From the NCBI RefSeq assembly GCF_016907535.1, contig NZ_JAFBCF010000001.1:2046001-2110000 (forward strand): a stretch of 64,000 nucleotides of DNA, in the 5' to 3' direction. The DNA is from Microlunatus panaciterrae (GTDB taxonomy: Bacteria > Actinomycetota > Actinomycetes > Propionibacteriales > Propionibacteriaceae). This document shows, piece by piece, positions 3,034 to 26,634 of the stretch. The notes beneath the pieces are model-generated. The model saw only the letters and a program-made list of their open reading frames with translations. It was not told where the DNA came from and searched no databases. Made by a program: the position numbers and the translations under genes. Position 1 is the first letter of the stretch, and each line of letters opens with the position of its first letter.

Positions 3034-3528
3034 GTGGCTGTGAGAAATTACCTGATCGAAGGCGTTTCCGGCACCGGGAAGACCTCGGTGTGCAGAGAAT
3101 TGCAGCGGCGCGGCTACCACGCCATCAATGGCGACACCGAGTTGGCTTATCAAGGTGATCCGGAAACCGGTGAACCGATGGACGGCTCAACGCATGAGCG
3201 CCATATTTGGGATGTTGACAAGGTGAAGGCCCTGGTCGCCAACCAGGATGAGCCGGCACTGTTCTTCTGCGGTGGATCCAGGAACTTCCCGCAATTCATA
3301 GGCCTGTTCGACGGCGTTTTCGTCCTTGACGTCGACCTTGGCACTCTGAATCGCCGGCTGGACGAGCGAAGGGACGATGATTGGGGCGGCAACCGAGTGG
3401 AACGGGAGCTCATCGTGAGACTGCATCGAACCAAGGAAGACATTCCGCAGAATGGCATCGTCATCGACGCCACCGCCTCGGTCGCGCACGTCGTTGACGA
3501 GATCGTTCGGCAGAGCCTGATGTCATAG
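3034..3528 (+). CDS. small P-loop nucleotide kinase-like protein
   Basis: 164-aa single-domain P-loop protein. Seen: Walker A GVSGTGKTS near residue 9-17, a following helix (SVCRELQRRGYHAINGDTE) typical of shikimate/adenylate-kinase-like folds, an Asp-rich hhhD strand (GVFVLDVDL) and a lid-like basic stretch (RRLDERRDDDW). Expected role is ATP-dependent phosphotransfer to a small substrate, which the sequence does not reveal. The start is GTG 3034 or GTG 3040; neither has a clear ribosome-binding site, so leaderless translation is possible. Its G+C looks visibly lower than its neighbours, suggesting separate acquisition. The stop overlaps the 3' end of the convergent selenouridine-synthase-like gene. 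Confidence 0.72.
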   Translation: MAVRNYLIEGVSGTGKTSVCRELQRRGYHAINGDTELAYQGDPETGEPMDGSTHERHIWDVDKVKALVANQDEPALFFCGGSRNFPQFIGLFDGVFVLDVDLGTLNRRLDERRDDDWGGNRVERELIVRLHRTKEDIPQNGIVIDATASVAHVVDEIVRQSLMS

Positions 3529-4326
3529 ATTCTGCCCGGCCTCGGGCGGCGACCTGATCACCTCCGGAAGCTCCCCGGCCGGCAGTGCCTGGCGGGCGGT
3601 GCGTGAGGCGCGCAGGGCGTAGCCGTGGTCGAAGTATTCCAACAGAACGCGGATGGCCGCGTCGGGCCGACCGGCATGGAAGTGGCTGATCGCCCGGTCG
3701 GTCCGCGGGTTGCCGAGATGTCGGCGGATGCGCTGGGTTGCGTTGATCAGCTCCCGGGGATCGGCCGACCCATAGGTTGCGACCAGTCGCTGGACGCGCT
3801 CCTCGAGCGGGCGGCTGAGCTCGACGGTATTCGCGTTGGCGATCGCCATGGCGACCTCGCGGGGGAGCCGCAGCGAGCCGATGTGCGGACCCTCGTCCTC
3901 CAGCCACACCGGCCGGCGCGGATCCCAGCCGGCAAGAGCACTCCGAACGAGACCGTCGAATTCGGGTTGGCTGGGCTGTGGGGTGGTGATGCCGATACGG
4001 CCGAAGGAGGAGCCGCGGTGGGCGGCCAGCCCCTCAAGATCGACCACCTGCTCGCCGGCCGCAAGCAGCCGCTCGAGCATCGCAGTCTTGCCGGTGCCAG
4101 CCAGACCGGTGAGCACGTGGAACCGCACCAGTCCCCCTAGGGCCACCGCCGTACGGCGATCAGACTCAAGTGCCCCCTGAACGGAGAGCCTGCACGGAAC
4201 TCCGCATCCACGGAGCAAGAACGCACGAGCTGCCGCCCAGGAGGACTCCCATCGGCTCGGAAACTCTTCCGTATCCCTCGGGTCAAATTCGAGTGTGACT
4301 AGCACTGCCTCCGGTTTCCCCATCAT
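3523..4326 (-). CDS. tRNA 2-selenouridine synthase (MnmH/SelU)-like ATPase lacking the rhodanese domain
   Basis: 267-aa protein whose C-terminal two-thirds match the P-loop half of MnmH/SelU. Seen: Walker A GLAGTGKT (about residues 74-81), the family hallmark DLEGLAAHRGSSFGRI (about 96-110), QPSQPEFDGLV and PVWLEDEGPHIGSLRLP. In canonical MnmH an N-terminal rhodanese domain with a YCWRGG cysteine loop performs sulfur-to-selenium or geranyl exchange on tRNA wobble uridine. Here the first ~70 residues show no such loop. The protein may be a split or repurposed relative, so tRNA modification is uncertain. The gene directly follows the 604-aa gene (TTG 4350 would overlap its stop), but the chosen ATG 4326 has only a weak ribosome-binding site. 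No selD is in the window. Confidence 0.68.
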   Translation of the reverse strand: MMGKPEAVLVTLEFDPRDTEEFPSRWESSWAAARAFLLRGCGVPCRLSVQGALESDRRTAVALGGLVRFHVLTGLAGTGKTAMLERLLAAGEQVVDLEGLAAHRGSSFGRIGITTPQPSQPEFDGLVRSALAGWDPRRPVWLEDEGPHIGSLRLPREVAMAIANANTVELSRPLEERVQRLVATYGSADPRELINATQRIRRHLGNPRTDRAISHFHAGRPDAAIRVLLEYFDHGYALRASRTARQALPAGELPEVIRSPPEAGQNL

Positions 4327-4346
4327 CTGTCGGGCCGGAGCGACCG

Positions 4347-6161
4347 TCAAGGTCCGGAGGTGATGCGGTCGAAGGCCAGGCCGGAACGTGCCTCCCCGCG
4401 GCCGGTGGTCACTCTGCGGGCATGCCAGACGACCGGAGTGCCGTCGTAGCGGCGGGCCCTGCGGAGAAGGCCCTGGACCTGGACGCCGGCTCGCGAAACC
4501 TCCTCTTCATGCACGTAGTAGGGCGTTACCCGGGTGTCCTCGTCGTCGATTCCCAGGCGCAGGATCGAGGTCATCGGACGGATCAGCGTGTCTTCGGGGC
4601 CGATGGTGCGGCGCATCGTGCCGCGCTGCAGCTGAATCGCGCGCAACTGCCCCGGCAGATGTACCGGGATGAAGGGGATCCAGTTCTCGGCGACCTCGGT
4701 CTGCAGGATGTAGCGAAGCTGACCGCTCCCCACCGCAGTCCCGGCTGCCGCGTCAGCGGTCGGGTCGAGTTGCTGTCGCAGCCGTCGGGAAGCCTCGGCG
4801 GCGTCCCGGGACCCGCCCAGGAAGTCCGGGATCCGCTGTTCGATCGCCCACACCATGTCGGCGGTCTCGTCACGGACGAAGGCCACCTGCTCGAGCGGCT
4901 CACCGTCGCTGATCTGCGGCAGTGTCTTCGGCAGGTAGAGGTGCTGGGGGAGCGCCGTCTGGGGCGGCCCGGAGGGCCGGGGCGCCAGGCTGAAGGCGTC
5001 CCATCCGGTCCAGTCGGACCCGGCCGGGTCGACGGTCGGCTGCACCAGGGTCCGCCAGCCGAAGGTGTCGGTGACGACCACCCCCTGGAGTTCGGCGACA
5101 CTGCCGACCGGCTGCCGGCAGAGGATCGTGAACCAGTCGTTGCTGTAGAGCAGTGCGAACTCGCTGACCACGATCCGCGCCGCGTCAGTGGCGTCGGCGC
5201 TCAGCTGACCGAGATCGACAGCGGCGTCCTCAAACTGCCACCAGCGCGGCTGAGGCATGCCCGGATACTCCGCCGGCACCGGGATCACCGAGCGGACGTC
5301 GACAACCCCCGCCGCAGACTCGTCCGCGGTCGTGGGCCCGGTGGCACCCTGGTCGAAGGAGTACCAATCCAGGTGCCCGCCCTGGTGCTCGGCCGCATCC
5401 ACGACCGTGCTCGTCGCGCCACGCGCGACCACTCCGCTGACGGCGTACTCCAACTGGTCGCCCTCCCAACGACTGCCGGCCGGGCCGCTGCCGGGGTCGG
5501 GCTGGGGGTAGGTGCTCTCGAACCAGCCGCGGTAGGCCAACAGCGCGTCCCGCACCAGTTGGTGCTGACCGGCCGGGACCCCGGCGGCGAACTCGGCCGG
5601 GAACATGGCGACGGTCAGATCCGGCGGGGTGACCTGATAGACCCGGACCCCATCCACGCAGCGGCCGCGGAGCGCCCGTCGTGCCCGGACCGCCCTTGGT
5701 GCCGTCCGGTCGCGGGCGGCGGCGATCGCGTCGGTGGGCTCGGCATCCAGCGGCCCGAAGAATCGATAGAAGAGGTCCCGGTAGACCTGCGGGTCATAGG
5801 CATCCGGGTCGACCCCGGAAGCGATCACCGCGGCGTCCAGCCGGCTCAGCAGGGTCCGGCCGAGCCGGGCTCGCACAATCAACGGGAAGTCGATCGGCAG
5901 CCGCTCGGTGATGGCGTCCAGCCCGTCGTCGGGACCTGCGCCGGGGACCAGCACCGGATCGACCTGCCGGGCGAGCGTCGCGAAGATCGCCGACCCCGCG
6001 TCGGCGCCGGCGAACTCGCCGAACTGCCACTGCCGGCCGAGCATGAACACCGGGTCGGCAATCTTCGCCGCCAGCGTGCCGGCGAAGTCGACCTCCCTGG
6101 CACGCGGTTCGAGCCGCGACCAGATCCGCAGAGGTTCGCAGGTCGATGAGATGAAGGCCAT
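4347..6161 (-). CDS. conserved large protein of giant-protein cassette, unknown function (604 aa)
   Basis: I do not recognise a function. An N-terminal block LGRQWQFGEFAGADAGS (about residues 42-58) follows a REVDFAGTLAAKIADPVF segment. From memory this pattern (DP-hhLhxRQWQhGEFxGxDAGSP) recurs in uncharacterised bacterial proteins encoded beside other very large proteins. The rest is mixed alpha/beta with several Trp-rich segments (WYSFDQ, PRWWQFED, NDWFTI). There is no signal peptide or membrane helix. ATG 6161 has AGGA eight bases upstream. It sits 36 nt after the 2086-aa gene in the same direction and probably shares its transcript. I infer cytoplasmic localisation and participation in a complex with its giant neighbours, from co-orientation only. 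Confidence 0.8.
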   Translation of the reverse strand: MAFISSTCEPLRIWSRLEPRAREVDFAGTLAAKIADPVFMLGRQWQFGEFAGADAGSAIFATLARQVDPVLVPGAGPDDGLDAITERLPIDFPLIVRARLGRTLLSRLDAAVIASGVDPDAYDPQVYRDLFYRFFGPLDAEPTDAIAAARDRTAPRAVRARRALRGRCVDGVRVYQVTPPDLTVAMFPAEFAAGVPAGQHQLVRDALLAYRGWFESTYPQPDPGSGPAGSRWEGDQLEYAVSGVVARGATSTVVDAAEHQGGHLDWYSFDQGATGPTTADESAAGVVDVRSVIPVPAEYPGMPQPRWWQFEDAAVDLGQLSADATDAARIVVSEFALLYSNDWFTILCRQPVGSVAELQGVVVTDTFGWRTLVQPTVDPAGSDWTGWDAFSLAPRPSGPPQTALPQHLYLPKTLPQISDGEPLEQVAFVRDETADMVWAIEQRIPDFLGGSRDAAEASRRLRQQLDPTADAAAGTAVGSGQLRYILQTEVAENWIPFIPVHLPGQLRAIQLQRGTMRRTIGPEDTLIRPMTSILRLGIDDEDTRVTPYYVHEEEVSRAGVQVQGLLRRARRYDGTPVVWHARRVTTGRGEARSGLAFDRITSGP

Positions 6162-6197
6162 CGCAGGTTCCTAAGTCGAGAGTCGGAGTTCGTCCCG

Positions 6198-9100
6198 TCA
6201 GGGATTGTTCTGGTGGAAGTCGAGGATCACGCGGTCGCCGGCAACCTCGGAGCCCGCGGCATGGGGGACGACCTCGCCGACCAGCAGCGGCAGCAGTTGG
6301 CCGTAGCGGCTGGCGCCGAGGTGCTCGACCTCGACCATCCGGTTGCGGGCGATCTCGAGCGTGTCGTGCAAGGTGGCGGCGAGATCGGTCAGCGTCCAGG
6401 GCTGGTCCAGCACCGGCGGCACTGCGACCAGGATCGCCTGCGGCGCGGTGGAGTCGGGCTGGTCGTAGTGCAGCGCCACCCCGGTGACCTCCTCCCGGTA
6501 GGGCACCGATTCGCTCCACTCGTCGACCAGCAACGCAGTCCCGGTCGACCCGGCGGCGGGCAGCTGGTCGGCGCCGAAGATCACCACGCTCACCTTGCCG
6601 GTCAGCAGGGCGGGATCCGGCAGGGCGCCGCCCAGCCACGGGGTGCCATCGACGTGCGGGAGCTGGGCGACCTCCCCGGTCAGCGAGTGGCGCCCGAGGG
6701 CCTCGGCCAGCAGCTGCACTTCAGCCAGGTCCGCAGCCCCTGGACGAACCGCGGCCGCCCCCTCCAGCCAGGCATCGAGGTCATCCGGGCCGACCAGGTG
6801 CGAGTCGAGAGCGGTCTGCAGATCGGCGCGGACCGGGTCAAGCCCGACCCGCGGCACCAAAGTGAGGCCGTCGCCCAGCAGGTCCCTGGCGGCCTGTGTC
6901 CAGGTGCTCGCCGGCTTGGGCTCGGGCGCGGCGGCCAGGGTGGCGGCTGCCGTACGACAGCGCCCGGCCAGGTCGAGGAAGGCCACCTCGGCCGACTGCA
7001 GCAACTCCGTACTGACCTGGATCCGGGAGAGGTAGCGGCGCGGCAACCCGACCCGAATCCCATAGGCCTGCGCCGCCTTCGCCGCCGTCCGCCAGGCGTC
7101 GCGGCCCGCCCAGAAAGCGTCCAGTCGTGCGAGCCTCTCGGCCCGCTCGGCAGGTGTGCCGGAGGTGAAGTCGAGCATGGGCAGCCAGGCGCTCGGATGT
7201 TCGGCCGCTGGATCCGCGGGGACCGGTGTCCGGAGCGTCCCCAGCCACACCGCCGGATCGCCGTCCAGCACCGCGGAATCCAGCCCGCCGTCCTCGGCGA
7301 GCAGGCGGGCCAGCGCCACCGCGTCCTGTCGAGCGCCGTCCAGCAGACGCTGCACCCGAGTGGCCAGGTCGTCGACGTCGATCCCGTCTCCGGCCGTCGC
7401 GGTGAACTCCGGGGCGGCGTAGTCCGACGCGTTCGCAGGCCTGGACTTCCCCAGCAGATCCGCCGCCGCCTCAAGCAGTGGTGCGACGTCGGTGATGCTG
7501 CGGATCAGCGGACCCCAGGCGGGTGCCCGCAGGGATTCGATCGTCCAGCTGTCGGTCGCGGTGGTCTGCGGCCCGTCGGCCACCACGACGCCCGGCTGGT
7601 CAGGCGGCAGCTCGGCCGGTCGCAGTTGGTCGAGCACTCGGGCGGTCAGGGTACCGACCGCCGAGTCGAAGCCGTCGGCGAGCAGCGCCACCAGATCCAG
7701 CGGTTGCAGGCCCAGGTCGGCGACCGACACCTCCGGCAGCGCCGCACCGGGGGCCAGGCCGCCCGAATTGAGCCGGATCCGGATCTTCGCGGGATCCCCG
7801 AGAAGGACGCCGAGCCAATGGTTGACCGCTGGTTCGAGGGCCGCCCGTGCGGTCATCGGCACCGCCTCCCAGCCGACTGGGCCGACCACCGGATCGGCAG
7901 ACATGGCTGGCAGCTGCAGGATGAGTTTGTGGCTGATCGGAAGCCCGGTCCGCGGTGTGTCGGTGACCTCGGGATGCGGGATCGCCGTGCCCTCGGACAG
8001 CGCGGCCAGCACCGCCGCCGCCCGTGCGTGATTGCCGCGCACCAACTGGTGCACGGTCTCGCTGATGGTCAGATCGGCCAGCGCGTCCAGGGCGTCGGCG
8101 ATCGCGTCGATCCCGCGCAGGACCCCGACCAGCTTGTCGGTCTCGGCTCGGGGCGGCAGCGCGCCCGGCTTGGTCAGCCAGGGATAGGCGGCCTGGTGGG
8201 CCCACAGGGTCTGGAACAGGGTGCCCTCGGCATCGGGGTCGTTGGCCTCGACCCAGTCCAGCAGGGTACGGACGAGAGCGAGTCCGTCGACGACGTACCG
8301 AGTCGGTTCGGTGACCGCTTCGGCGCCCGGGGCAACCGCAGCCACCGTCGGGTAGGCCCGTCGAAGCGGGAAGATCGCCGAGTCCAGCTCCACCACCTGC
8401 GGGGTGTCGGGGCGCGCGTAGTACTCGTGCAGGAAGCGCTCCAGGCGGTACCCGAGCAGCGCGCCCAGATCATTGCCTGCGCGTACGCCGTCGATCAGGG
8501 ACAGCGCGACGCGCACCCGGTCCGACGACAGGTTGACCGACATCTCGTTGCCGAAGGAGCCCTCTGCGGTCTGCGAACGGTAGGCCGCGCGCAGGATCGC
8601 CGCGGTCACCGCATGCGTCGGCGACGGGGTCTGGATGAAGCCCTCCCCGGTCGGGTCGGAGATCAACGGACGCCCGGGCAGGCCGGCCAACGCCTCCGGG
8701 ACGGCGGTGGCGGGCGGTGCGCTCGGCTTGCGGCGCAGGTTCTCGACCCAGCCGTAGGCGCCGATCTGGGCCCCTCGCGGTCGGCGGGCGCGCAGGATCT
8801 GGAGCCGCCGGTGCGCGAGCCCACCGAGCCAGGCGTCGAGCCGGTAACTGCACAGATCCAGGTGTTCGCGGGTGAGCGCGGTCATCCGGTCGGCCGGCAA
8901 TCCGGCGAAGGTGGTGATCGCGGCCCGATGGTCGGTGATCACGGCCGGCCGGAGCGCGGCGACGACCTCGGCCATCGTGCGGTTGTCGAGGTCGGCGGGC
9001 ACCGGAACGCCGGCGCCGCCGAGTTCGGCGAGCCGGTTGACGGGGGTGAAGAGCAGCCCCCAGGCCGACGTCCGGGACAGGGTGCCGGCGGACCAGGTCT

Positions 9101-12100
9101 GGTACAGGCTCGAGGTGCCCAGGATCGCCAGCGCCTCCTCCGACAACAGACCGCGGGTGATAAGGACGTCCGCTGCCGCGCGCCGGGCCTCGGCCAGCAA
9201 CGCGTGCCGGACCAGCAGCTCAGCCAGGCCGACGTTCGCCAGGTCGTCCTCGGTCCGGGCCCGGACCTCGGTCAGCGCCAGGCTGAGCAGGTTGAGGATC
9301 CAGGTTCCGGTGCCGGTGGTGGTGCCGTGGGCCGGAACCGAGACCACGCCCTGCAACGGCCAGAGCCCGGTGAGCAGCCGCAGCCCGTAGGCGCGGGAGG
9401 TCTGGAGCAGCTCCAGCACAGGCTTCCAGTCCGCCGACGCCTGCCCGGTCGAAGGATCCCGCGGTATCGAGGCGGGTGGTAACCCAAAGGCGGTGCGGAA
9501 GACCTCCTCGAGGTGCTCCATCAGTGCGAACGGCCCCAACGTGGCTGCAGTGTCGACGGAGGTCCCCTCGGTCGGTGGGACGCCGAAGCTCAGTCCGAGG
9601 TCAGGCTGGCCGCGAACCCCGCCACGGTCGGCGACGTTGAGCGCGAAGCGGTAGCTCGACCCGACCGAGGAGAATTCCAGGCCCAGCATCCCGAGGAAAT
9701 GCTGCTGGGCGTCGAAGCCCGGCTGCCCGACCTCGGGGCTGTGCGCGTGCTTGACGGCCGGGCCGCCGTCGGCGCCGAGGCGGATCGTCGACCAGTCCCG
9801 GTTCAGCTGCCGGAACAGCCCGAGCAGGGTGTCCTCAAACTTCTTCTGCCGCGCCCGCTCGGCGGGGGCGGCAGCGTCGAGGCCCGAATCGCGGAGGTCG
9901 GTCCGGAAGCGGCTCAGCGCCAGCACCGGCAGCAGCCCGTACGGCTGGTCGTCGACTCGGATCGCGGGCAGCAGCCCGCGTCCCGAGACATGGGCGAGCG
10001 CGTACCTCCGCAGCCGATCCCGGGCGTCCCGGCTGATGAGCCCGGAGGCCAGTTCCTCCAAGGCGTGCCCGATCGTGCCGGGGTAGAGCACCTGGTTGGC
10101 GAGTAGGGCGTCGTTCGCATCGGTACCGTCGGCGCCGGCAACGTGGGCCAGCACGTCGGTGTCGATCCCGAGAGCCGTCGCCAGACGGCTGCCGTCGGAG
10201 TCGTTGGTCGTCGCGGCGAGTGAGGGCCCGCGCTCGATCGGGTACGCCTGGTCGGGGTCGTCCGTGCTGGAGTAGCCGGCCCGGTCGTCCTCGGTGTTGT
10301 TGGTCGCCGTGCCGACCGGCAGCACCGAAAGGCCATCGGCGGTGTAGTGGTGGGCGTCCAGCATCGCCGTCAGCCGAGCCTCCGCGTCGGCGGCATCACC
10401 GTCGGAGAGGCCGAGGACCAGCAGCTCGTCGAAGCCCTGTTCGGCCTCCTGAGCGGTGATAGTCAGCCGCAGAGCCATCCCCTTGGCCTCGGCCTCGTCG
10501 AAGTCGGACATCCAGCGGAGGCCGTCCGGCACCACCAGATTGCCGTCCTCGTCGAGGCTGAAGGTGTCCCCGCTCGGGTCCAGGCCGAGTTTGAGGTCGG
10601 CCGGGATGGGCCGGCCGGCCGTCACCTTTCCCGCCTTGCCGCCGCTGATGGTGAAGACCGCGAAGCGCTTCGGCAGCACCGTCGAGGAGGCGGCCCGGGT
10701 CCAGGTGCCGCTGCGGGTGCCGACGGTCGGGGTCGTCGGCTGCGGGATCGGCTCCACCGGGATCCGCTGCATCCGGCCGACGAGCTCGTCCAGCAGCTTG
10801 ATCCACTCCGCGGGGACGTTGCTGAAGACCTGGCTGAGGCCGACCAGGGTGGCCCGCTGGGTCTGCAGCCGGGCGGCGATGGTCGTGATCGCAGTGGCCG
10901 GCAACGCCTCGGCGGCCTCGAGAGACGACTGCACCGCCTGCAGGGCCCGGGCGATTGCGGTGAGCTGGCGGTCGGTCAGGGCTCGCCTCGGCCGCAGTAC
11001 CGGAGGGCGCCCAGGGCGCTCGTCCGGCACGGTGCGGTCCCCGCCCAGGACGGCGGCTCGTTTCTCCAGCGCGGTGATCGCGTCACTGATCAGCTTGGCG
11101 GCGGCGGCGCCGGGGGTTGGTCCGGTCTCGGCGGGTTCGAACGGTTCGGTGACCCGGGCGACCCACGCTGCGCGTTGGGTGCTGCGGCCGATGCAGAGCG
11201 CCCGCCAGGCGCCCTTGCGGAGGTCCTCGTCGTCGCCGGCCGCAGCCGTCTCGGTCCAGAAGTGGGCCCCGTCGTTCCGTTCGGTCTCGGTCAGATCTTC
11301 TTCGTGGCTGTCGACGGCGAGCGGTTCGGGGTAGACCCGCACCAGCAGTTGATGGACCGTCCTGGTCGGCCGGGCGAGGGCAAACACGGTCGACGCGGTG
11401 CGATCGGGGACTTTTCGGTCGAGGTCGGGCCGGTCACTCGGGGTGGCCTCGATCTCAGCGCGGAGCTCGGCCGCACCGGGCCGCCCCGCGGCCACCGCGA
11501 GTCGGGCGAGCAGGTCGGCCTTGAGCGCTCCGGGCAGCAGCGTGATCCCTGCGGCTGCTGCCCGCAGGTCGGGGCCGAGGGCGGCCATCGGGTCGGTCAG
11601 CCGGCTGAGGATCAAGTCGGCGGCCTCGGCGGAGGCGATCAGCTGCGACCGGTCCAGCCGCACCACCCGGGCGGCGCCGAGCGCGTCGGCTGTGGTGCCG
11701 TCGCCGATGACGATCCGGTGCCGGGGGCGCCGCCCGGCGGGACCTGCGGTGCCGGCTGCGGGTGCGCCGCCGGGCAGCCCCGGTCGCAGCGGCAGCCCGG
11801 CCGGGGTGCGGCCGAGTTCGCGGGCGGCCTGCGCTCCGGTCCGCAGGCCGAGGTCCGCGACCAACCGCAGCGCGGGCTGGACCCGGCCCGCTATCGCGCG
11901 GAACAGGGCCTCGGCGATGGCGACCTGTTGGTCGAAGGCGGCCAGGAAGCGCTCGCGCTGGTAGTCCGACCGAAGGCCGCCGAGCCCGGCACGCGCCGCA
12001 CCGATCCCCTCGCGCAGTGCCGGCAGGGCCCTGGCCAACCGGCGCTGCTGTTCCGGCGTACCGGCGGTGATCGGCTGCTCCAGTTGGAAACGCAGCCTCT

Positions 12101-12458: not shown

Positions 12459-12474
12459 CGCGTACCTCTGTCCC

Positions 12475-15400: not shown

Positions 15401-15627
15401 ATGTCGCCCGGCCCGACCAGGGACACCTGCTGGCTGACCACCGCGGGACCCACGGCCGACGCCCCTGGGACCGGCACAGACTCCAGGGTGATCGAGGCAG
15501 TCAGCGTCGCACGGTCCTTCGTACCGGCGTTGGGAGTGGTTCCCAGGTGGTCGACCTGGTCTACACGAGTGGCGATGCCGCGCCGGGACCACGGGAGGAA
15601 GCTGTACTCCGGCAACTCAGTGGACAA
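12475..15627 (-). CDS. large protein of giant-protein cassette, unknown function (~1050 aa)
   Basis: Start chosen at TTG 15627, which overlaps the end of the 2871-aa gene by 11 bases and has a G-rich GGGGGTG site upstream. The frame remains open to 15879, but that part is a Pro/Arg/Ser-rich antisense-like translation. The protein opens with ELPEYSFLPWSRRGIATRVD, then GPGDIKSL, VEFYDEDFPWRYSPA and LRPWLVLLVF (first ~200 residues), a pattern I recall from unannotated giant-protein loci. The middle is helical (ERVADATTATLRWLAELN...), and the C-terminal third has PDIPELHGWEHDLG and FGFELTPEEAAG segments. No catalytic motif, signal peptide or membrane segment is visible. The tight overlap with the gene upstream suggests translational coupling and a joint function. 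Confidence 0.82.
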   Translation of the reverse strand: MSTELPEYSFLPWSRRGIATRVDQVDHLGTTPNAGTKDRATLTASITLESVPVPGASAVGPAVVSQQVSLVGPGDIKSLKPDTVLRAMPVPGSVNASPGELAYVEFYDEDFPWRYSPARATAAHKLRPWLVLLVFADGEYTLTPIPGEVAILTITDAAPLPPVTETWAWAHVQTQGDLGAGDPGDLLDDYVRSAPDRALSRLLSPRRLDLNTGYRAVVVPAFEVGRLAGLGTPAEPGTVPAQQPSWGQGQPRVFPVLYDWTFRTGELADFEVLARRPKAYRIEAEGFGTRDLDISDPGAGVEATPGTTVAFEGALAPVDFATRVGYPTSPGAPIINQLREVVDLAVDFRETGAGADEDPIVTPPAYARKHAALERVADATTATLRWLAELNLDPRNRAAAGLGAEIVRQRDEEYMERAWAQVEELDAVNQRLREADLALTTNERVFAKHISHSGPDRLLGMTAGAQSGLRTADATDTSIRGVVDASRVPVAAQAPAFRRITRPRRPLIRSLTTITTGLPGELQSGLLNRLNEDPATAVSTAPPAPEPALSVAPTLVQTAAQAVAAQLPRGRDVLPVLAGDEVEARRLAGTLAAITIDQLHTAIRGRLDTTYPATTAGNAELRAEVIALNDALTTVDVGADDEATVLRMPEAIFTEHYGSAIDGKNYLSVVIAPSTATTLTTLAPTAGLTNAVDFAAALADFSALSASRPIPAPAAALAAPATLATRVSLQLRPRVAMPARLATVLGGVDDLAADLANSRRLRPVMAYPTFDDPLFAPLSQLGQDYIIPNIANLPAESIALMVPNVRFIESLLAGVNTEFARELLWNEYPTDQRGTYFARFFDAADAGVDRPPDIPELHGWEHDLGTNAPQLSGLLVLVVRAALLVKFPDTIVFAQHGRYTGAGASRHRTLDEAGEIRYPVIRGRLDPDISLFGFELTPEEAAGTAADAGFFFCFMERPGQLRFGLDLDEDPSTPAPALTSWDDLNWKHLQPVAGQPPTQVLVSANTGLAPTTGGLPDWGQTSAHLASILCQNPVWLARHATDMLPVQATT

Positions 15628-18600: not shown

Positions 18601-21600
18601 ACACGACGATCTCCACCTCGCCGGCGGCGGCCTCGCCGAGCGGCACGATGCGTAGGCCGAGCCGGTCGCCTGCGAGGCTGAACTCAATCTCGGGGGTGAA
18701 CCAGTCCAGCGGATCTCCGACCTCCACCCGGGCCCGCAGCAGGCCCTCGAAGTCGTTCAGGTAGCCCAGCCTGGCTTCGAGGATGCTGACCGGGCCGGTA
18801 TCCAGGCCGGTGAGGGTGATCAGCACCTGCGGGTGGCCGTCGGCTGCCCAGCCCAGTTCGGCGCCGAGCTCGCAGCCGGGCAGCAGATCCATCTCCCAGC
18901 GCAGCCGGTCCTCCACTCGAACGATTCGGTGACCTGCGGGCAGCGGGATGACGCCGGGGTTGCCGCCGCTGGGGAAGAGGCTCCGGATGTGGTCGATGAT
19001 CAACGCCGGGTCGGTGACCTGGTCCTGCAGCCAGCCGGGGTCGAGCATGTCCCGCAGCAGTTCGACCTGCGTGCTGCCGGTGAAGCCGTCAGCGGACGGG
19101 TCGTAGAGGCCAAGCGCCTCGGCGATCTGCAGAGCGACGTCCAGTACCGGGTGCGGCGGGTTGGGTGCGAGCGCGTCGACGATCTCCTGCAGCACCTTTG
19201 GCACCAGGGCGGTGACAGTGTCGCCGAGCAGCTCACCGAGCCCCGAGACGGTCGGCAGCAACTGGATCGGGCCGACAGTGTCCGGGGTGATCACCAGCCG
19301 GACACCGCCCGCGTCGACGCTGAACGCGATCGTCAGGTCGCCCCAGTCACCAGGCAGCTTCAGGTCCAGGGTGATGGCACCGGCCGGTGTCACCTGCACG
19401 TCCGTCGGCTGCGTTCCGGTGGTACGCAGAGCCAGGCTGAGCGCGACGGTGGCGCTCACGACGTCCGAGTCCTCGCCGAACGTGCCCGTGAGCTGCACGA
19501 GGAGCGGCTCGCTGCCAGAGGCGGTGATCAGGAAGCCGCCGGGCAGCGCGAGACCCTGATCGCTGTCGAGGGCGAGGGCACCAGCGATCGTGCGGAGCAG
19601 GTCGTTGATCTTGTCGCCGTCCAGCAGCCCGGCGGCGGTGCCGAGCGCGGCCGGGCTCCGCAGCCAGCTGACCGGGTCGCGGACCAGTGCGCTGATCGGA
19701 GGCACCGTGGTCGCACCGCCGGTCAGGTCACCGAGCACCGCGCTCGCCACTGCCGACACCGCCAGTTCGGGGATCAGGTCGACCAGCCGGGACTGCAGCG
19801 CTGCCGCGTCGAACGGCCGCAGCACCAGGGGTGCCGCCAACCACGGGTCGGCGCTGACGTTGATCGTGCCGTCGGCGGGCCGGCGCAGCAGTGCCGGTCC
19901 GGCGATCACCGAGACGTCGAGGGTGGGCGCGAGCGTGCGGGTGGCGAGGTCGAGCTGGCCGCAGATCCTGAACGGCTCCGCCACGATGATGTCGGCTGTG
20001 GTCTCCAGCCGCACCACCATCGTGGCGTCATCCAGACTGAGCCGGAGCGGCAGCTCGGGCAGCGTGATCGACAGTGCGCCCGGGTCGAGATCGCCCAGGT
20101 CCAGACCGGTGGTGTCAGGATCGCCCAGGATGTCGCGCAGCACTGTCAGCAGATCGGTCCGACGCTCGCTCAGTGTCCGGATCGGTACGGTGGCCAGGTC
20201 GATGAGGCCCTGGATGGAGGCGCGCGGTCCTTCGGTGGTGGTGATGACCGCCCCCGCGGCCTCGAGCAGGTCGAGGGCGGCGTGGGCTGCCGGGTTGGCG
20301 GCCGCGGCGTGCAGTTCGGCCAGTACGGCGTCGATCACCTCCCGCAGACCGTCATCGGCGAGCTCGACCACCTCCCGGACCGGGGAGGCGTCGATCGACG
20401 CGTCGACCAGCCGCAGCCAGGGCCGGATGCCCAGGCCACCGGTGGAGCCTCCGCCACCGGCCGGGTGGACCATCACGCCCGCCTCGACCTGTCGCACCCG
20501 TGCGGTGACCGGTCCGTCCGGAAGGGCACCCGCGCCGACGAGCCAACCGTCGGGCCGGAAGGTGGTCGTGCTGAGGCTGAGCGCAGTGGCGGGTCGCGGT
20601 GGTTCCGCAGCACCCGGGACGAGCCGCAACCGGGCCAGGTCGACCCGCGCGTCGGCCGCGAGCGCGATCTCCCGCGGCCCCTCGGCGTCGACACCACCGT
20701 CGTCACCGTGCGGGGTGGTCAGACCGAGGCGGACGCCGAAGGAGAGGTGGCTCGGCGGCTCGGCGGCGGTCAGTCCGGTGATCGTCGAGCCCGTCAACAG
20801 CCCGAGCAGGTCCCCGCTGAGCCGGGAGCCGACGGCGAACCCAGGCACCGTGTCAACAAGACCATCCGCGACCCCGGCGAACCAGCCGAGTTTGACCGGC
20901 CCGCCCAGCGCTCCCCCGGTGCCGTCCAGCAGCCCGTCCAGCCAGCCGACCGTGCCGCCCAGGGCGCTCTCGGCGATCGACCCCGACACCGAGGCGGCCA
21001 CCCGGACCGCGTCGGCTGTGAGGGCGTCGACGAGCGGGGACAGCTCGGAACCATGATGCGGGCTGCCAAGGGTGATCAACCCGCTGACCAGCTCCGGATG
21101 GGCCGCGGCCAGGTTTCGGGCCACCACGCCGGCAGTGGAATGGCCGACCAGCCGAACCGGCTGCCCGGTCAGCGCCCGCACGCGCTGGGCCACCGATCGC
21201 AGTTGTTCGACCTCGCTGACGGCGTGGTCGGCGAGCAGGTCCGCGGTGTAGATCGCTGCCACAGCGACGATCTGGCCGAGATCGACCTCGGATGGATCGG
21301 GCAGCGCACGCAGATCGAAGTGCCGGCCGGGCAGCGTTGCCGCCCCCGTGACGGCGGTGATCAGCTCGTCGAAGATCATGCGATCGGCGAACGGAGGCGC
21401 GACCATCAGTATCGGCCCGCTGCCGGCGGCCAGCCTGGCCACGACCTGGCTGATCACCGCTGGATCCTTCGGCAGCAGGCCGTGCGGAGTGCTGACGGTG
21501 GTGCCCAGGGTCCAGCCGTCCGGCAGTTGCGAGGCCAGCGGCACCAGCCCGTCGCCGTCGCCCAGCCAGCTGGCAAGATCATCGAAACCGTGTGCCAGGG

Positions 21601-24232
21601 CGTCCAGATTGCGGCCGCGGAGAAGAGTGCCGAGCTGGGGCCGCAACGCGGAGGCATCGGCTAAGAAGCTGACCAGGAAGTCACCGTCGGTCACCTGGTC
21701 GGCAAGCTGGGCGATGGCGGAGATCCATTCGGCCGGCGGCCCGGCCGGCTCCAGCCACACCAGCCCGTCGACCTTCGTCACGCCCCGGGACGCGTCGGTG
21801 GTGTCGTCGACGATCGGGATGACCCACGGGTCGTCGTAGCGGCCGTTGCCGGTGATCGACCGCAGCGATGGAGCATCGAAGCCGCCGAGCCTGAAGCCGC
21901 CCGGCAGCAGTCGGCCGAGCAACTGCAGGCCGTTGCCGACAAACGTGACACCGTCGGCCGAGATGCCAGTGAGCAGTCGCTCCAGGTGGGCACGCAGCAC
22001 GGTCGGCGGGTCGTCGAGGAACAGCTGCAGTTGATCGACACCGCCGAGCAGGTCACCGAGCAGCGGCCAGTCGTCAGGCAGTTCCGGCAGGTCCCGGTGC
22101 AGGCCCAGCAGGGCGGCGAGGACGTAGGCGGGTTCCCCGGCCCAGGAGCGCAGTGCCGAGCTGATCAGCTGACCGAGCAGCCGGATGGCGTCCGCGCCGA
22201 GCCCGAGGTCGGGTTGCAGGCCGGGCAGCACGAGGTCGTACGGACCGAAGACCTGCTCCTCGAGGGTGATCGTGACCCCCGTGATTCCCACCTGCCAGAG
22301 CGGCTGGTCGCCGGGCCGCCAGGTGACCAGTGCGGCGGCGCGGCCGGACGTCAACTGCAGACCGGAGAGGTCCAGCGGACCAGTGGGGGTGATCTCGACC
22401 GCCAGTTGCGAACGGCCGACCAGAGCCACCGAACCGGCCCCGCTGGCCGGCAGGTCCAGGGCCAGCAGCTCGACCAGCAGTCCGCCCTCGAAGACGCCCT
22501 GGCCGGCGCTCAACATGAGGCCCAGCCGGAGCCGCTGCAGTCCGTCGGGGTCGGTATCGGTCCGGGCGTCCCAGGCCGCCAGTGACAGCCCGACCGGGCC
22601 GGCCGTGGCGATCGGGGTGACCCAGGGATCCTCGGTGCTGCCGGCGCCGGTGACGACCGGTGTCAGCCCGACCAGGATCGCCACCTGCTCGAACATGTGC
22701 GACCACGGATGCGCGGCATCGGCAAGAACCGTCCGGTGCAGCGCGCCCAGTGCGATCGTCGGCCCCCGGCCCAAGGCCGCCGGGTCCAGCAGGTGTGGCG
22801 TGGTCGGGTCTGAGTCCGGGCGGCGCAGGCCCAGCAGGGTGAGCAGCGCGTGGGCGATCGGGCTGTCCCCGAAGGCGTCCTGGAGGATGTGCAGGGCTGC
22901 ATCGGCCGCCACCCCGATCACCGCGTCTGCGTCGGTCAGGTCGACCATCCCATGGTCCTCGCCGCTGATGATGACATCGGTGATCGCCAACCACGGTTGC
23001 AGGTTGCCGTCGGCGAGCCGGAAGCCGGCGCCGAGCTGGCCGATCTGAAGATCGGGGACGTTGGAGATCAGGTTGCCGGTGGTGGGCGCGATCAGGCCGA
23101 CGGTCGCCTCCGCGACGAACTGCGTGCGGCGAACAGGCGCTCCGGGGTCCGCAGACACCCCCGGCACTGCAGGCAAGGGGATCCGCAGAACAGTCACCGC
23201 CCCGGACAGGGCGACCGGACCGGCATCCACCCGGACCTCCAGGCCGATCTCCAGCTCTCGGTTCGGGGTAACCTCGAGCAGCAGGGAGAGGTCGACGATG
23301 TCGGAGTCCAACAGTCGTGCCCGGAAGGGGTCGTCTTCGGTGCCCGTGCCGCCGACCGGCAGATCGTCACCGATGAGGCCGCTCAGGTGGGTTGCCCAGG
23401 ACGTCAGGCTGGCCGGGGAGTCGACGATGTCGACGAGCCAGTCCAGTACCGCTTCCGGGTGGGAGAGAAGATCCTCCAGGGGCAGCGGTGGGATCTCCGA
23501 GGTGTCGTCGGTGCTGATGCCCAGGAGCTCGAAGAGGTGCTCAGCGAGCCGGGCCAGTTGTTGGTTGCCGCCGGCGTCGGCGACCAGCAGGTCGACCACC
23601 TTCTGGAGCAGCAGTCTCAGCGCCTTGACCAGATCCGTACCCACGGTGGCGGAGTCGATCACCAGATCCACAGGCTCAGCGCCGCCGAGGATGAAGTCGT
23701 CGACGGTGACCCGGACCCCGGCCTGGACGCCCAGCGGCGCAGCCTCGTCGAGATGGATGCTGACCGCGGCACCGATCCTGCTCATCGGGATGTCGGCGGA
23801 CGTGAAGCCGATGTCGACGCCGACCAGCATCGGCCCATCGGCGGTGCCGGCGATCGCCTCAAGATCACCGGCGACGCTGACCAGCGGAAGCCGGACGGTG
23901 CCCTGCACCTGGCCGACGCCGGAGCCGAGGACGCCGCTGTGCAGGCCCGCGGCGACGCCGATGATGTCGCCTTCGACGGTCAGATAGAGGTTGCCCACCT
24001 CGGTGTCCAGCAGCGGGTACCAGCCGGGGAGCCCCGGGTCGGGCGGCAGCAACTCGTCCAGCAGCCGCAGCAGCGCGGCCCGCTGACTGGGGTTGGAGAG
24101 CACCCGTCGGATGGCGGACAGTGGATCATCGAACCAGCTCGCGACCAGCTGCCCGTCGTCATCGGTGACGCCGATGGCAGTGAGCAACGAGGTGGTCTGT
24201 GGATCGACCCCAAGGTCGAGAGTCATCACCAT
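15617..24232 (-). CDS. 2871-aa giant beta-rich protein with embedded alpha/beta-hydrolase-like module (DUF6603-like C-terminal region)
   Basis: The largest gene in the window. About residues 1-900 are repeated beta-strand modules (e.g. LEIGLEVRVDAGPVALSG) separated by GTEDDPF, STEDPWVTPI and GRYDDPWVIPI turns. A lipase-like segment follows near 970-1080: PILMVAPPFADRM, LVGHSTAGVVARNL (nucleophile-elbow Ser1032) and LGSPHHGSEL. Further long amphipathic beta modules come next. Around residues 2270-2600 there is FFFAGAGGLLGLNRGMD, and downstream WCWGxQPD-type and GFHPSYTP segments, which I associate from memory with DUF6603. No signal peptide or membrane helix is seen. ATG 24232 has GGGGG directly upstream; ATG 24226 is an alternative with better spacing. 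It is the first gene of a five-gene minus-strand run. Function unknown; a scaffold or amphipathic-sheet role is speculation. Confidence 0.85.
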   Translation of the reverse strand: MVMTLDLGVDPQTTSLLTAIGVTDDDGQLVASWFDDPLSAIRRVLSNPSQRAALLRLLDELLPPDPGLPGWYPLLDTEVGNLYLTVEGDIIGVAAGLHSGVLGSGVGQVQGTVRLPLVSVAGDLEAIAGTADGPMLVGVDIGFTSADIPMSRIGAAVSIHLDEAAPLGVQAGVRVTVDDFILGGAEPVDLVIDSATVGTDLVKALRLLLQKVVDLLVADAGGNQQLARLAEHLFELLGISTDDTSEIPPLPLEDLLSHPEAVLDWLVDIVDSPASLTSWATHLSGLIGDDLPVGGTGTEDDPFRARLLDSDIVDLSLLLEVTPNRELEIGLEVRVDAGPVALSGAVTVLRIPLPAVPGVSADPGAPVRRTQFVAEATVGLIAPTTGNLISNVPDLQIGQLGAGFRLADGNLQPWLAITDVIISGEDHGMVDLTDADAVIGVAADAALHILQDAFGDSPIAHALLTLLGLRRPDSDPTTPHLLDPAALGRGPTIALGALHRTVLADAAHPWSHMFEQVAILVGLTPVVTGAGSTEDPWVTPIATAGPVGLSLAAWDARTDTDPDGLQRLRLGLMLSAGQGVFEGGLLVELLALDLPASGAGSVALVGRSQLAVEITPTGPLDLSGLQLTSGRAAALVTWRPGDQPLWQVGITGVTITLEEQVFGPYDLVLPGLQPDLGLGADAIRLLGQLISSALRSWAGEPAYVLAALLGLHRDLPELPDDWPLLGDLLGGVDQLQLFLDDPPTVLRAHLERLLTGISADGVTFVGNGLQLLGRLLPGGFRLGGFDAPSLRSITGNGRYDDPWVIPIVDDTTDASRGVTKVDGLVWLEPAGPPAEWISAIAQLADQVTDGDFLVSFLADASALRPQLGTLLRGRNLDALAHGFDDLASWLGDGDGLVPLASQLPDGWTLGTTVSTPHGLLPKDPAVISQVVARLAAGSGPILMVAPPFADRMIFDELITAVTGAATLPGRHFDLRALPDPSEVDLGQIVAVAAIYTADLLADHAVSEVEQLRSVAQRVRALTGQPVRLVGHSTAGVVARNLAAAHPELVSGLITLGSPHHGSELSPLVDALTADAVRVAASVSGSIAESALGGTVGWLDGLLDGTGGALGGPVKLGWFAGVADGLVDTVPGFAVGSRLSGDLLGLLTGSTITGLTAAEPPSHLSFGVRLGLTTPHGDDGGVDAEGPREIALAADARVDLARLRLVPGAAEPPRPATALSLSTTTFRPDGWLVGAGALPDGPVTARVRQVEAGVMVHPAGGGGSTGGLGIRPWLRLVDASIDASPVREVVELADDGLREVIDAVLAELHAAAANPAAHAALDLLEAAGAVITTTEGPRASIQGLIDLATVPIRTLSERRTDLLTVLRDILGDPDTTGLDLGDLDPGALSITLPELPLRLSLDDATMVVRLETTADIIVAEPFRICGQLDLATRTLAPTLDVSVIAGPALLRRPADGTINVSADPWLAAPLVLRPFDAAALQSRLVDLIPELAVSAVASAVLGDLTGGATTVPPISALVRDPVSWLRSPAALGTAAGLLDGDKINDLLRTIAGALALDSDQGLALPGGFLITASGSEPLLVQLTGTFGEDSDVVSATVALSLALRTTGTQPTDVQVTPAGAITLDLKLPGDWGDLTIAFSVDAGGVRLVITPDTVGPIQLLPTVSGLGELLGDTVTALVPKVLQEIVDALAPNPPHPVLDVALQIAEALGLYDPSADGFTGSTQVELLRDMLDPGWLQDQVTDPALIIDHIRSLFPSGGNPGVIPLPAGHRIVRVEDRLRWEMDLLPGCELGAELGWAADGHPQVLITLTGLDTGPVSILEARLGYLNDFEGLLRARVEVGDPLDWFTPEIEFSLAGDRLGLRIVPLGEAAAGEVEIVVLPTPDVVLTAEGGLRLAGSWLLPLITRYVIPQVETLLNQPLWPSGPSSRAILRGAGLVTSDTGAVQIVDQFPEPSVIGLGALKRALSSVSVKISDDLDLGFAEDAGRLGIRLQGSVNFPGDVSVTLLFGEHDWIGAGAGVTAWVVGPSADPALPVAPAPGLDVVGVGLQIAGADDEHPLFGGDDDSVVQLGGVAAILFANFAFWDATTSRATFAVDSLGGAVELINTAIRVNGSDGDSFVAKLIPQELGAGFTTAIAYRNDQLEVHGGPGDLDNGIELTFPLNLNLFDVIFLRELYLAAVFGQQSDLVAALSGNAELGPIAVTVDRVGLRVTITGSGAVLSFKPPDGFGFSLDASTIRLGGFLLVDEARGRYVGALEIAVLEKFALTAIGIITTKKPDGSPGFSLLMLITVTLPVPIPLGYGFFFAGAGGLLGLNRGMDVDRIRDGLRTGTADSILFPTDIINRIDVIVRDLEESFPAQEGHFLIAPMAMITWMNPALVTLKIGIVLEIAPQPNIALLGVLRLALPTPDEAVVDLKVAFIGGIDVGASLLYFDAAIYDSFIGYADFKLSLEGDIAIRLCWGAQPDLVVSIGGFHPSYTPAAHLKLPVMRRLSLSLLKDNPRLTLRLYFAVTSNTIQFGAQLEFFVGVSGFSISGDLGFDVLVQFVPFLIDAHMWGKLAVTAGGTDVCSISLDLQLRGPTPWYAHGTASIRILFFKISVEVEATFGEAHETSIPAEPVLPKLLDQFRDPLNWTAELTASASAGVTLLPLPGDELVVDAGGLLSARENLIPLETDIGLVGKTPPSDVQRVTITGLSFGTDAADFDDVTAPFSPSTFAGLSSTSSDLLKAPAFEDRPNGVRASSGQTLEADFVLHHPQTYEMIVIDDPDPEAPTPAAVPANPQLTFSRLVVGGAIGSSAPSRLQAKRAERGKVRSATAAEPLYAVTAKDSLVPLGADGQPAAGGTMLLSRTDAEQRLAGLPADGRRFQIVPGVQVVH

Positions 24233-24504
24233 CCCCCATGCCGAAAGTGCCAGAGCGTTGTCGCCAGGATGACCACGCCTGCCGGCGCCGTGATCAGGAA
24301 GAGGTCAACGTCGTGGTGCCCGCCCGAAGGGCGCCATGCGGGTCAGCCTAGCGACGGCTGATTCACCGCAACAGAGGCTTGATCGTCGAGTTCCGCTGCT
24401 CCGGGCACTCGTCATCGATCCATGCACGCTTGCTCGGTGCTGGGCTCTGTCGGTGTGGCCCGGTCGGGTACATACTGGTCGGCAGGTTGATCGAGGAGGT
24501 GCTC
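24233..24504. promoter_or_regulatory. divergent promoter region of the giant-protein cassette
   Basis: 272-base gap between the divergently read 2871-aa and 709-aa genes; it must contain both promoters. The plus-strand gene has a strong GAGGAGG site at 24493-24499. I see no convincing -35/-10 pair, operator dyad or RNA structure. Confidence 0.5.
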
Positions 24505-26634
24505 GTGACCATCGTCGACGACATCCTGGCCGCGCTGGGCCTCGCCAAAGTGCCGGGGACCGCCCGTAATCTGTTGCGATGGCCAGTGCCGCCCACCCCA
24601 CCGGCGCCAAGACCGCCGTTGGTCGAGGGTGTGCTGGCCCACCTCCGGGGCGACCTCACCACCGACTCCAGTTTGCGTCCCCGGGTCAGCTTCATCCTCG
24701 GCCCGGGTGCGACACTCGGCGGTGTCGTCGCCGAGCTGACCGATCTGCTGGCCACGATCACCACCCGTACGACCGCAGCCCCGATCCCCGATCGAGGCAC
24801 GGTCGGGGCGGCACTGCAGACCTACAGCGCCACGCACCTGACCAACACCCCGACCGACGTGCTGAAGGTCGGCTTCCGGATGCCGCTGCCGATCGAGATC
24901 GACGAGGACACCGGGGAGTGGGTCACCAACCTGGAGACGATCCGGGACTGGGCTCAGGTGCCGCCAACGATCGTGCTGCCGGCCGGGGTGGTCGGGCCAC
25001 TGCTGATTCCTGACCCGGATGCGCTGCGCGCCGAGGTCGCCGCCGACCTGGCGGCCGTTGCCGACGCCAGTGATCTCGGGATCGCGCTGGCCGCGCGTGC
25101 GCTGCGGAACCCCTACGAGCCGGTGTTCTTCGCCTACGAACTGTTCGACCAGGTGCGGCGCCTGCGGGCCGCCGAGGAGGTGCCGCTGGCGCTGGAACTG
25201 GTCGACTCGCTGGTCAACCATCAGGCCCAGCTGTTGGCCAGCACCACGGCTGGCAACGCGGTGCTGCGGCGGCTGTGGTTCGCCGTCGAGTCGGTCGATG
25301 CCGCAACCCTGGTGGGCGACCCGCGGGACAGCCTGCTTCGCGGCCGCCGGTTGTTGGCCACAGCCCTCGGGCTGGCCGCGACCGTGCCGCCGGTCCTCGA
25401 CACCTGGCAGAGCCCGCTGGTCGCCGGCCCGTCGATCACGCCGCGGGAGGCTCCGTTGCCGGCGGCCAACGTCAACTTCGCCGCGGCCAACGCGCCCGCC
25501 GGGTCCGAGACGGCGATCGAGGCCGCCGGTAACAACCAGCAGGTGGTGCTCGGTCGCCAGTTGAGTGCCGGGAACACCGGCGTGTATGACGGCTACACCG
25601 GCCCGGCCCACATCGGCCGGGTGTTGCCGGCGGCCTTCGTCGCCGCCCATCAGGTCGAGATCAATCCCGCGGGGGACCCGCGGCTCGATGCCCGGTCGCA
25701 GATCGTGGTCGCGATCGCCCCCAACGAGGGCCGGCTGGATGCCGCACGGCTCCGGGACCGGGGCATGCTCTCCACCGGCCTGCAGCAGTGGACCGAACAC
25801 GTCAACACCGAGGCCAACGTGCTCTGGGAGCACTTCCGTGGACTGGCCCCGGATCAGTACGACCTGCACTTCGGGCTGTACCGGCTGTATCCCCAGATCT
25901 GGGGCGCGCTGGAGGCTGCAGCCACTCCGGTGCCATCGGCCGCCGCGTTGGCGGCCGCGAACCCGTGGGCGGATCCGGCCGTGACCGCCGATCCGCTCGC
26001 GCTGCCTGCCGCCCCGGTTGATCATTTCCCTCTGTATGCCACGCTCTATGAGCTTGTCCTGAATGGCAGGGTCAGGATGCACCAGTCGACGGCGGCCAAC
26101 ATCGGACCCCGGTTCGCGTTCTTCAAAGGCAGCGGTCCGGCGGGGGCGCGGGTCTTCACCGCGGAATGGGGGGCGAGGGCGCGACTCGCGGCACGTACCT
26201 CGGTCGCCTATTGCGTCGCCGAGATGCAGACTGCGAACAAGCGCTTCGACCGCATCCTGCGCGACACCGGGGACTTTCTCATTCCCGGCACGCCTGCCCC
26301 GCTGGGTGGCGGCCCGCTGCCGCGCTACACGGCCGCCGACCTCTTCACCACCCAGTACGGGGCGGCACTGGTGCTGGACCACCACATCAATGCGCCGGGG
26401 CTGGTCACCGGGGACATCACTGACGCCGTAAACACCACCACGGCCGTGTCGGGCCAGGCCGCCTTCGACGCCGCAGGCAATCTGCGCGACCCGTGGGTGG
26501 TTGCCCTGGCCTCGCGGTACCAGGTCGTGCGGCACTTCCCCGGGCCGGGGGCCAAGGCCCAGCGTGATGGTTTCATCAACGGTCTGCCGGCTGCCGTCCT
26601 GTCCCGCGCAGCGGGGTCCTTCGCCGGGTGGTGA
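24505..26634 (+). CDS. 709-aa protein with lysozyme-like NEG motif, giant-protein cassette
   Basis: Start GTG 24505 lies five bases after GAGGAGG and gives VTIVDDILAALGLAKV; upstream in-frame residues to 24379 look non-coding. An N-terminal Pro-rich linker (PVPPTPPAPRPP) is followed by an Ala-rich helical region. Near residue 395-470 is an NEGRLDA segment (E408), then a RDRG and STGLQQW continuation, and FRGLAPDQYDLHFGLY. This spacing resembles the lysozyme-like modules of some injection-system-associated proteins (NEGxxDAxxxxDxxxxSxGxxQW), with the NEG glutamate as candidate catalytic acid. That relation is from memory and unproven. The C-terminal half is otherwise unrecognised. No signal peptide. 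Divergent from the 2871-aa gene, which suggests shared control. Confidence 0.8.
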   Translation: MTIVDDILAALGLAKVPGTARNLLRWPVPPTPPAPRPPLVEGVLAHLRGDLTTDSSLRPRVSFILGPGATLGGVVAELTDLLATITTRTTAAPIPDRGTVGAALQTYSATHLTNTPTDVLKVGFRMPLPIEIDEDTGEWVTNLETIRDWAQVPPTIVLPAGVVGPLLIPDPDALRAEVAADLAAVADASDLGIALAARALRNPYEPVFFAYELFDQVRRLRAAEEVPLALELVDSLVNHQAQLLASTTAGNAVLRRLWFAVESVDAATLVGDPRDSLLRGRRLLATALGLAATVPPVLDTWQSPLVAGPSITPREAPLPAANVNFAAANAPAGSETAIEAAGNNQQVVLGRQLSAGNTGVYDGYTGPAHIGRVLPAAFVAAHQVEINPAGDPRLDARSQIVVAIAPNEGRLDAARLRDRGMLSTGLQQWTEHVNTEANVLWEHFRGLAPDQYDLHFGLYRLYPQIWGALEAAATPVPSAAALAAANPWADPAVTADPLALPAAPVDHFPLYATLYELVLNGRVRMHQSTAANIGPRFAFFKGSGPAGARVFTAEWGARARLAARTSVAYCVAEMQTANKRFDRILRDTGDFLIPGTPAPLGGGPLPRYTAADLFTTQYGAALVLDHHINAPGLVTGDITDAVNTTTAVSGQAAFDAAGNLRDPWVVALASRYQVVRHFPGPGAKAQRDGFINGLPAAVLSRAAGSFAGW

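What the first reader, a model, noticed from the sequence alone, without database searches (positions are those of the whole stretch)
3523..26634. Five-protein giant cassette of unknown function
Four co-directional genes (2871, ~1050, 2086, 604 aa) with overlaps or gaps under 40 nt, plus a divergent 709-aa gene, occupy over 22 kb. None carries a signal peptide, membrane helix or clear full-length family. Signature segments (VRVETRF / VYPxxLxVDSHE; RQWQFGEFAGADAGS; FPWRYSPA...LRPWLVL) feel like recurring hallmarks of uncharacterised large proteins, so this is probably a conserved multi-protein system, not junk. It could be a large intracellular assembly, or cargo or scaffold of an exported particle; both are speculation.
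Basis: partly seen in the sequence, partly recalled or inferred. Interest (0 to 1): 0.82.

Follow-up and report, generated by a model that had tools for sequence, protein, structure and literature searches.

The report
Giant four-protein cassette with swappable enzyme
The window holds a block of four giant proteins of unknown function that is inherited as a unit in very different bacteria and some salt-loving archaea, often next to one exchangeable enzyme, which suggests an undescribed enzyme-carrying complex.

Summary
The four co-directional giant genes are real: P1-P2-P3-P4 (2871, 1050, 2086, 604 aa). P1 does carry known families: Pfam DUF6603 and a lipase-like stretch. P2 and P4 match no library model; P3 only sub-threshold.

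P2-P3-P4 are in order and co-directional in 74 of 74 loci holding all three (80 fetched; six cut by contig ends), from ten bacterial phyla; haloarchaeal plasmids carry all four. DUF6603 occurs in 70 of 71 genomes picked by P4. Pairwise distances of P2, P3 and P4 correlate at 0.96-0.98.

New here: an exchangeable gene often precedes P1. A fixed rule finds one before 64 of 97 DUF6603 ORFs; 53 look like enzymes (trypsin-like, subtilisin, M64 and M14 peptidases, PhoD, phospholipase D, tyrosinase, galactose oxidase). The class changes at least 27 times on a 59-row P4 tree. Trypsin-like and some subtilisin proteins share one C-terminal domain. In the window the enzyme is probably the lipase-like stretch inside P1.

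Best reading: a carrier complex for a swappable enzyme. P5 is a rare accessory. Assembly, location and target are untested.

The parts
15617..24232 (-). P1, 2871 aa, DUF6603 protein with a long N-terminal part
   Evidence: ORF; Pfam PF20248; coding bias
16175..17692 (-). DUF6603 domain of P1 (residues 2181-2686); predicted long amphipathic antiparallel strands
   Evidence: E 8e-110; model; amphipathicity
20981..21217 (-). Lipase-like stretch of P1 (residues 1006-1084) with GHSTAG
   Evidence: Best E 8e-9 to solved lipases; GHSTAG also in four relatives; catalytic Asp and His not identified
12475..15627 (-). P2, about 1050 aa
   Evidence: ORF and start; relatives in 74 of 80 loci
6198..12458 (-). 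P3, 2086 aa
   Evidence: ORF; relatives in 79 of 80 loci
4347..6161 (-). P4, 604 aa
   Evidence: ORF; family used for the genome-contig scan
3523..4326 (-). P6, stand-alone MnmH-like P-loop protein after P4; start uncertain; lineage-specific neighbour
   Evidence: NF008750 159.6 bits, positions 139-316 of 346, below its cut-off of 241; similar genes near P4 in 20 of 80 loci
24505..26634 (+). P5, 709 aa, divergent optional accessory, not core
   Evidence: ORF; rarity

Best explanation
A horizontally spreading carrier module. Four proteins (P1 with DUF6603, P2, P3, P4) are encoded and inherited together and most likely assemble into one large complex that holds a single exchangeable enzyme. The enzyme is usually encoded directly before P1; in the window lineage it is probably the lipase-like stretch built into P1. 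The DUF6603 part gives the complex a broad hydrophobic beta-sheet that would bind lipid or enter a membrane, so that the enzyme acts at a membrane or on another cell after release. Shown: the gene unit, its co-inheritance, the enzyme position, its repeated exchange, and a C-terminal domain shared by two unrelated protease folds. Predicted by model: the amphipathic sheet. Inferred only: physical assembly, membrane contact, release, target.
For: P2-P3-P4 in order and co-directional in 74 of 74 loci with all three; DUF6603 in 70 of 71 genomes picked by P4; P4 and DUF6603 together in 8 of 396 genomes of the phylum against 10 and 12 alone, Fisher p 1.6e-12; distance correlations 0.96-0.98 over 46 loci; one P3-P4 fusion. 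Upstream gene before 64 of 97 DUF6603 ORFs, 53 of enzyme classes; at least 27 class changes on the P4 tree. Shared C-terminal domain in 14 of 14 trypsin-like and 4 of 7 subtilase upstream proteins. Relatives fused to lamin-tail, FG-GAP, Kelch, PKD or peptidoglycan-binding domains.
Against: No Sec-like signal in P1-P4 and no injection or lysis genes among the annotated neighbours of six plasmid copies. 33 of 97 DUF6603 ORFs gave no upstream gene by the rule, among them the second cassette of this genome and L185-L187; L188 has a WD40 protein there. No domain is common to all enzyme classes. The class is still clustered on the tree (27 changes against a shuffled mean of 36.9), so exchange is not free. 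DUF6603 model is moderate (mean pLDDT 65.5) and no fold match is decisive.
Confidence: 0.5

Rival explanations
1. An intracellular conflict (defence) system: P1-P4 sense an invader and switch on a swappable effector enzyme inside the same cell.
For: Patchy distribution, plasmid copies, effector-like exchange, no Sec-like signals in P1-P4. Published conflict systems also swap trypsin-like and other peptidases and use small effector-associated domains (PMC7159879, passages).
Against: No PADLOC match for P1-P5; no NTPase, nuclease or sensor domain found in P1-P4; tyrosinase, galactose oxidase and extracellular-type partner domains fit poorly.
Confidence: 0.2
2. An extracellular or surface enzyme scaffold: P1-P4 form a matrix that displays one nutrient- or matrix-modifying enzyme of the producer.
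For: Enzyme classes are mostly of secreted kinds (general knowledge); lamin-tail, FG-GAP, PKD, Kelch and peptidoglycan-binding partners.
Against: No Sec-like N-terminus in P1-P4; no sortase or anchoring signal was looked for.
Confidence: 0.15
3. A lipid-binding particle: DUF6603 wraps or carries lipid and the enzyme remodels it.
Confidence: 0.1

Closest known systems
DUF6603 (Pfam PF20248)
   Same: P1 is a clear member (368 bits, cut-off 27)
   Different: The Pfam entry has no function and does not describe the P2-P3-P4 unit or the enzyme; 0 papers name it in the held library
Extracellular contractile injection systems (eCIS)
   Same: Fixed core with variable enzymes or toxins; a domain linked to unlike toxins (DUF4157); patchy spread incl. 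archaea (PMC8213781, passages)
   Different: No sheath, tube, baseplate or AAA component found in P1-P4 or among annotated neighbours of six plasmid copies
vWA-MoxR/VMAP and related conflict systems with effector-associated domains
   Same: Swappable trypsin-like and other peptidases; small shared adaptor-like domain (PMC7159879, passages)
   Different: No such core components found in P1-P4; the shared C-domain has no significant Pfam match
Polymorphic toxin systems
   Same: Exchange of enzyme modules on a fixed frame (PMC3482391, start of abstract in a search listing)
   Different: Variable enzyme is mostly a separate gene at the 5' end; immunity genes were not looked for
Apolipoprotein B belt and porins (fold only)
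   Same: Large amphipathic antiparallel sheet
   Different: High rmsd, no sequence similarity shown, no outer membrane in the window's host group (general knowledge)
MnmH (for P6)
   Same: P-loop half
   Different: Rhodanese half missing, below cut-off

Membership tests
DUF6603 (PF20248) | Profile score above the curated cut-off of 27 bits | tested here: met
   368.2 bits, E 8e-110
eCIS | Sheath, tube, baseplate, spike and AAA components in the locus | tested here: not met
   No such Pfam match in P1-P4; none named among annotated features around six plasmid copies. Neighbours of the other loci were not scanned with Pfam except upstream genes
VMAP / effector-associated-domain conflict systems | VMAP, vWA and MoxR components | tested here: not met
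   None in P1-P4 by Pfam, NCBIfam or PADLOC
VMAP / effector-associated-domain conflict systems | Shared small domain is an EAD | tested here: inconclusive
   No match better than E 0.04 in Pfam for four stand-alone copies; no EAD alignment was on hand
Polymorphic toxin systems | Toxin domain with adjacent immunity gene | not tested
   Not looked for
Apolipoprotein B / lipid-transfer fold | Same fold with significant structural match | tested here: inconclusive
Lipase family (P1 stretch) | Nucleophile elbow in a lipase-like context | tested here: met
   Phmmer to solved lipases; GHSTAG in window, G007, Demequina, Tessaracoccus, Kineococcus
Lipase family (P1 stretch) | Complete Ser-Asp-His triad and activity | not tested
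   Asp and His not identified
MnmH (P6) | Rhodanese plus P-loop domain, score above cut-off | tested here: not met
   159.6 bits against 241, P-loop part only

The most novel reading that the evidence does not exclude
An undescribed enzyme-delivery machine shared by Bacteria and haloarchaea and unrelated to phage tails: a very large complex of P1-P4 whose DUF6603 sheet enters lipid and which carries one swappable hydrolase or oxidase to the membrane of another cell, with a loading domain used by unrelated proteases.
Probability: 0.3. Interest if true: 0.88.

Novelty: categorically new. Interest (0 to 1): 0.74.

Why it matters
Three giant protein families without a Pfam model of their own, found together from Actinomycetota to Bacteroidota and in haloarchaea, are a large blind spot in annotation. 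If the carrier reading is right, this is a further way in which microbes deploy enzymes, with a natural plug-in position for the enzyme. Even if it is wrong, the fixed unit and the exchanged enzyme make the function directly testable. 'New' rests on family libraries, fold searches and the open-licence papers searched here; a description under another name cannot be excluded.

Tried and rejected

Limits. The 80 loci are the best 80 of 367 by P4 similarity, so they lean to the window type. PF20248 was searched in 71 of those 80 genomes. The 97 DUF6603 ORFs include the window, its second cassette, several copies per genome and cassettes without P4; an upstream gene counted only if co-directional, ending 1000-1550 nt before the DUF6603 domain and, in GC-rich DNA, with coding bias. 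The tree has 59 rows: 58 of the 80 loci and the window. Upstream loci were paired with P4 loci by me through genome handle and contig length; five labels were set by hand (L104 and L077, whose upstream ORF failed the bias filter; L054, L055, L056, whose proteases follow P4); the unclassified family CL3 counts as one class; 22 loci, among them L041 and L058 with unclassified upstream genes, were left out. It is a quick tree with long branches flagged.
Full report
What is there. The window lies in a single-contig genome of 4.07 Mb. P1-P4 run leftwards on the minus strand with gaps of -11, 16 and 36 nt; P5 is divergent with a 272 nt gap. Codon-position GC supports these frames over six long opposite-strand ORFs. 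P1 carries DUF6603 and a stretch similar to bacterial lipases. P2 and P4 match nothing in Pfam, NCBIfam, PHROGs or PADLOC at E <= 1; P3 has one sub-threshold Pfam match (E 0.035) and P5 one weak PHROG match (E 0.33). After P4 comes P6, a stand-alone MnmH-like P-loop protein.

Second copy and relatives. The same genome holds a second, diverged cassette at about 548.6-561 kb in the order P1-P2-P3-P4. Congener G007 has a cassette 83% identical in P4. A genome-contig scan with a 12-sequence P4 alignment gave 367 relatives; the best 80 were kept. Titles and origins put them in Actinomycetota, Bacteroidota, Acidobacteriota, Chloroflexota, Pseudomonadota, Planctomycetota, Myxococcota, Nitrospirota, Cyanobacteriota and Verrucomicrobiota. 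P3 relatives lie on 13 plasmid records, four haloarchaeal and one of Gemmatirosa; in Halalkalicoccus and Salinigranum all four proteins are found in order.

Is it a unit? P3 was found in 79 and P2 in 74 of the 80 loci. All 74 loci with the three genes have them in order and co-directional; the six without P2 end at a contig end. DUF6603 was found in 30 of 30 and 40 of 41 genomes picked by P4; the miss is G585. It lies directly before P2 in, for example, L129, L130, L183, L185, L189, L193, L200, L201, L203-L206, L208 and L211. In 396 genomes of the phylum, the window's own included, P4 occurs in 10, DUF6603 in 12 and both in 8, Fisher p 1.6e-12; in three of the eight (G245, G364, G400, all fragmented) they are on different contigs. 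A first search with the single P4 sequence had found 9. DUF6603 without P4 exists (G243, G284, G299, G382). Seven such loci carry a P2-like protein, related to P2 by profile (hhalign 94.9%, E 4e-8), so a second, diverged cassette type seems to exist. Distances of P2, P3 and P4 correlate at 0.96-0.98 over 46 loci, reached by 0 of 999 permutations. In one genome (G232) P3 and P4 are one ORF.

The swappable enzyme. By a fixed rule 64 of 97 DUF6603 ORFs have a co-directional gene directly upstream. They comprise 14 trypsin-like proteins (GDSG motif), 6 subtilases, 14 PhoD-like phosphatases (Pfam match in 12), 11 M64 peptidases (Pfam 11 of 11, HExxH 11 of 11), 4 phospholipase D proteins, one tyrosinase, and one each of M14 carboxypeptidase, galactose-oxidase-like protein and a further subtilase: 53. 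Eleven have no class, seven of them one family. The other 33 ORFs include the window lineage, where P1 itself is longer, cassettes without P4, three cassettes with proteases after P4, and cases without any candidate such as L003 and L185-L187. On a 59-row P4 tree the class changes at least 27 times (least possible 9, shuffled mean 36.9, as low in 0 of 200). Amycolatopsis orientalis (trypsin-like) and Rhodococcus rhodnii (M64) are neighbours there with SH-aLRT support 99. So the enzyme stays with the core for a while but is exchanged often.

A shared domain. Trypsin-like and subtilase proteins have unrelated catalytic folds (general knowledge), but about 120 residues at the C-terminus are one family (hhalign 98.5%, E 1.7e-15). 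A profile finds it in 40 of 12,565 ORFs examined: in 14 of 14 trypsin-like and 4 of 7 subtilase upstream proteins (not in L207, L235, L248), in further neighbouring proteases, and alone in four ORFs of 139-152 aa. It has no significant Pfam match. A loading or docking role is inference.

The window lineage. In the window, Demequina, Tessaracoccus, Kineococcus and G007, P1 (2,700 residues or more where the frame is whole) contains the lipase-like stretch with GHSTAG, while P1 has about 1,150 residues in many relatives. I take this stretch as the built-in enzyme. In Pseudosporangium (3,871 aa) no such stretch was found.

Folds. P4: mean pLDDT 79.3, no decisive PDB match. DUF6603 part: mean pLDDT 65.5, block means 70-95 between model residues 191 and 550; 21 strands, one face strongly hydrophobic (2.85 against -0.61; difference 3.46 against shuffled 1.47, 0 of 1000). 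Nearest solved shapes are the apolipoprotein B belt and porins, close to each other and with rmsd near 10. A lipid- or membrane-facing sheet is plausible, not shown.

P5 and P6. P5 is divergent beside P1 in Demequina (80% identical). In Actinomadura craniellae a 35% relative lies at the 5' end of a giant DUF6603 ORF on the same strand, the stop-to-stop frames overlapping. In G007 it sits away from the cassette. It looks like one more optional partner. P6-like genes lie after P4 in 20 of 80 loci, all among the 28 listed first, 17 of them starting within about 360 nt of the P4 end, on either strand.

Where it acts. Relatives carry lamin-tail, FG-GAP, Kelch, PKD or peptidoglycan-binding domains, mostly of extracellular proteins (general knowledge), yet P1-P4 show no Sec-like N-terminus. 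Release by lysis, an unknown route, or an intracellular role all stay open.

Noticed in passing
window 3523-4326 (-): P6: MnmH-like P-loop protein without the rhodanese half, directly after P4; similar genes near P4 in 20 of 80 loci.
   Followed up: partly
L003 3600-15957 (own genome, about 548.6-561 kb): Second, diverged P1-P2-P3-P4 cassette in the same genome, without an upstream enzyme by the rule used.
   Followed up: partly
L190, L191, L194, L196, L198, L214, L215: DUF6603 cassettes without P4 that carry a P2-like protein: probably a second type of the system.
   Followed up: partly
L129, L130 (haloarchaeal plasmids): All four core proteins in Archaea, P4 ending in a lamin-tail domain.
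   Followed up: partly
L217 4940-5365, L259 4546-4974, L261 6086-6544, L262 7016-7435: Stand-alone copies (139-152 aa) of the C-terminal domain shared by the proteases.
   Followed up: no
L188 13141-19497: P3 and P4 as one 2118-aa ORF.
   Followed up: no
L029, L030 (G007): P1 of the congener is spread over two reading frames near query residue 2457-2460; real or sequencing error not examined.
   Followed up: no
L144, L146, L147: P4 matches in three genomes of the window's family each cross one TGA; cause not examined.
   Followed up: no
L127 (MT835531): A faecal scaffold deposited as 'Bacteriophage sp.' (unverified, unannotated) holds P3 and P4 relatives.
   Followed up: partly
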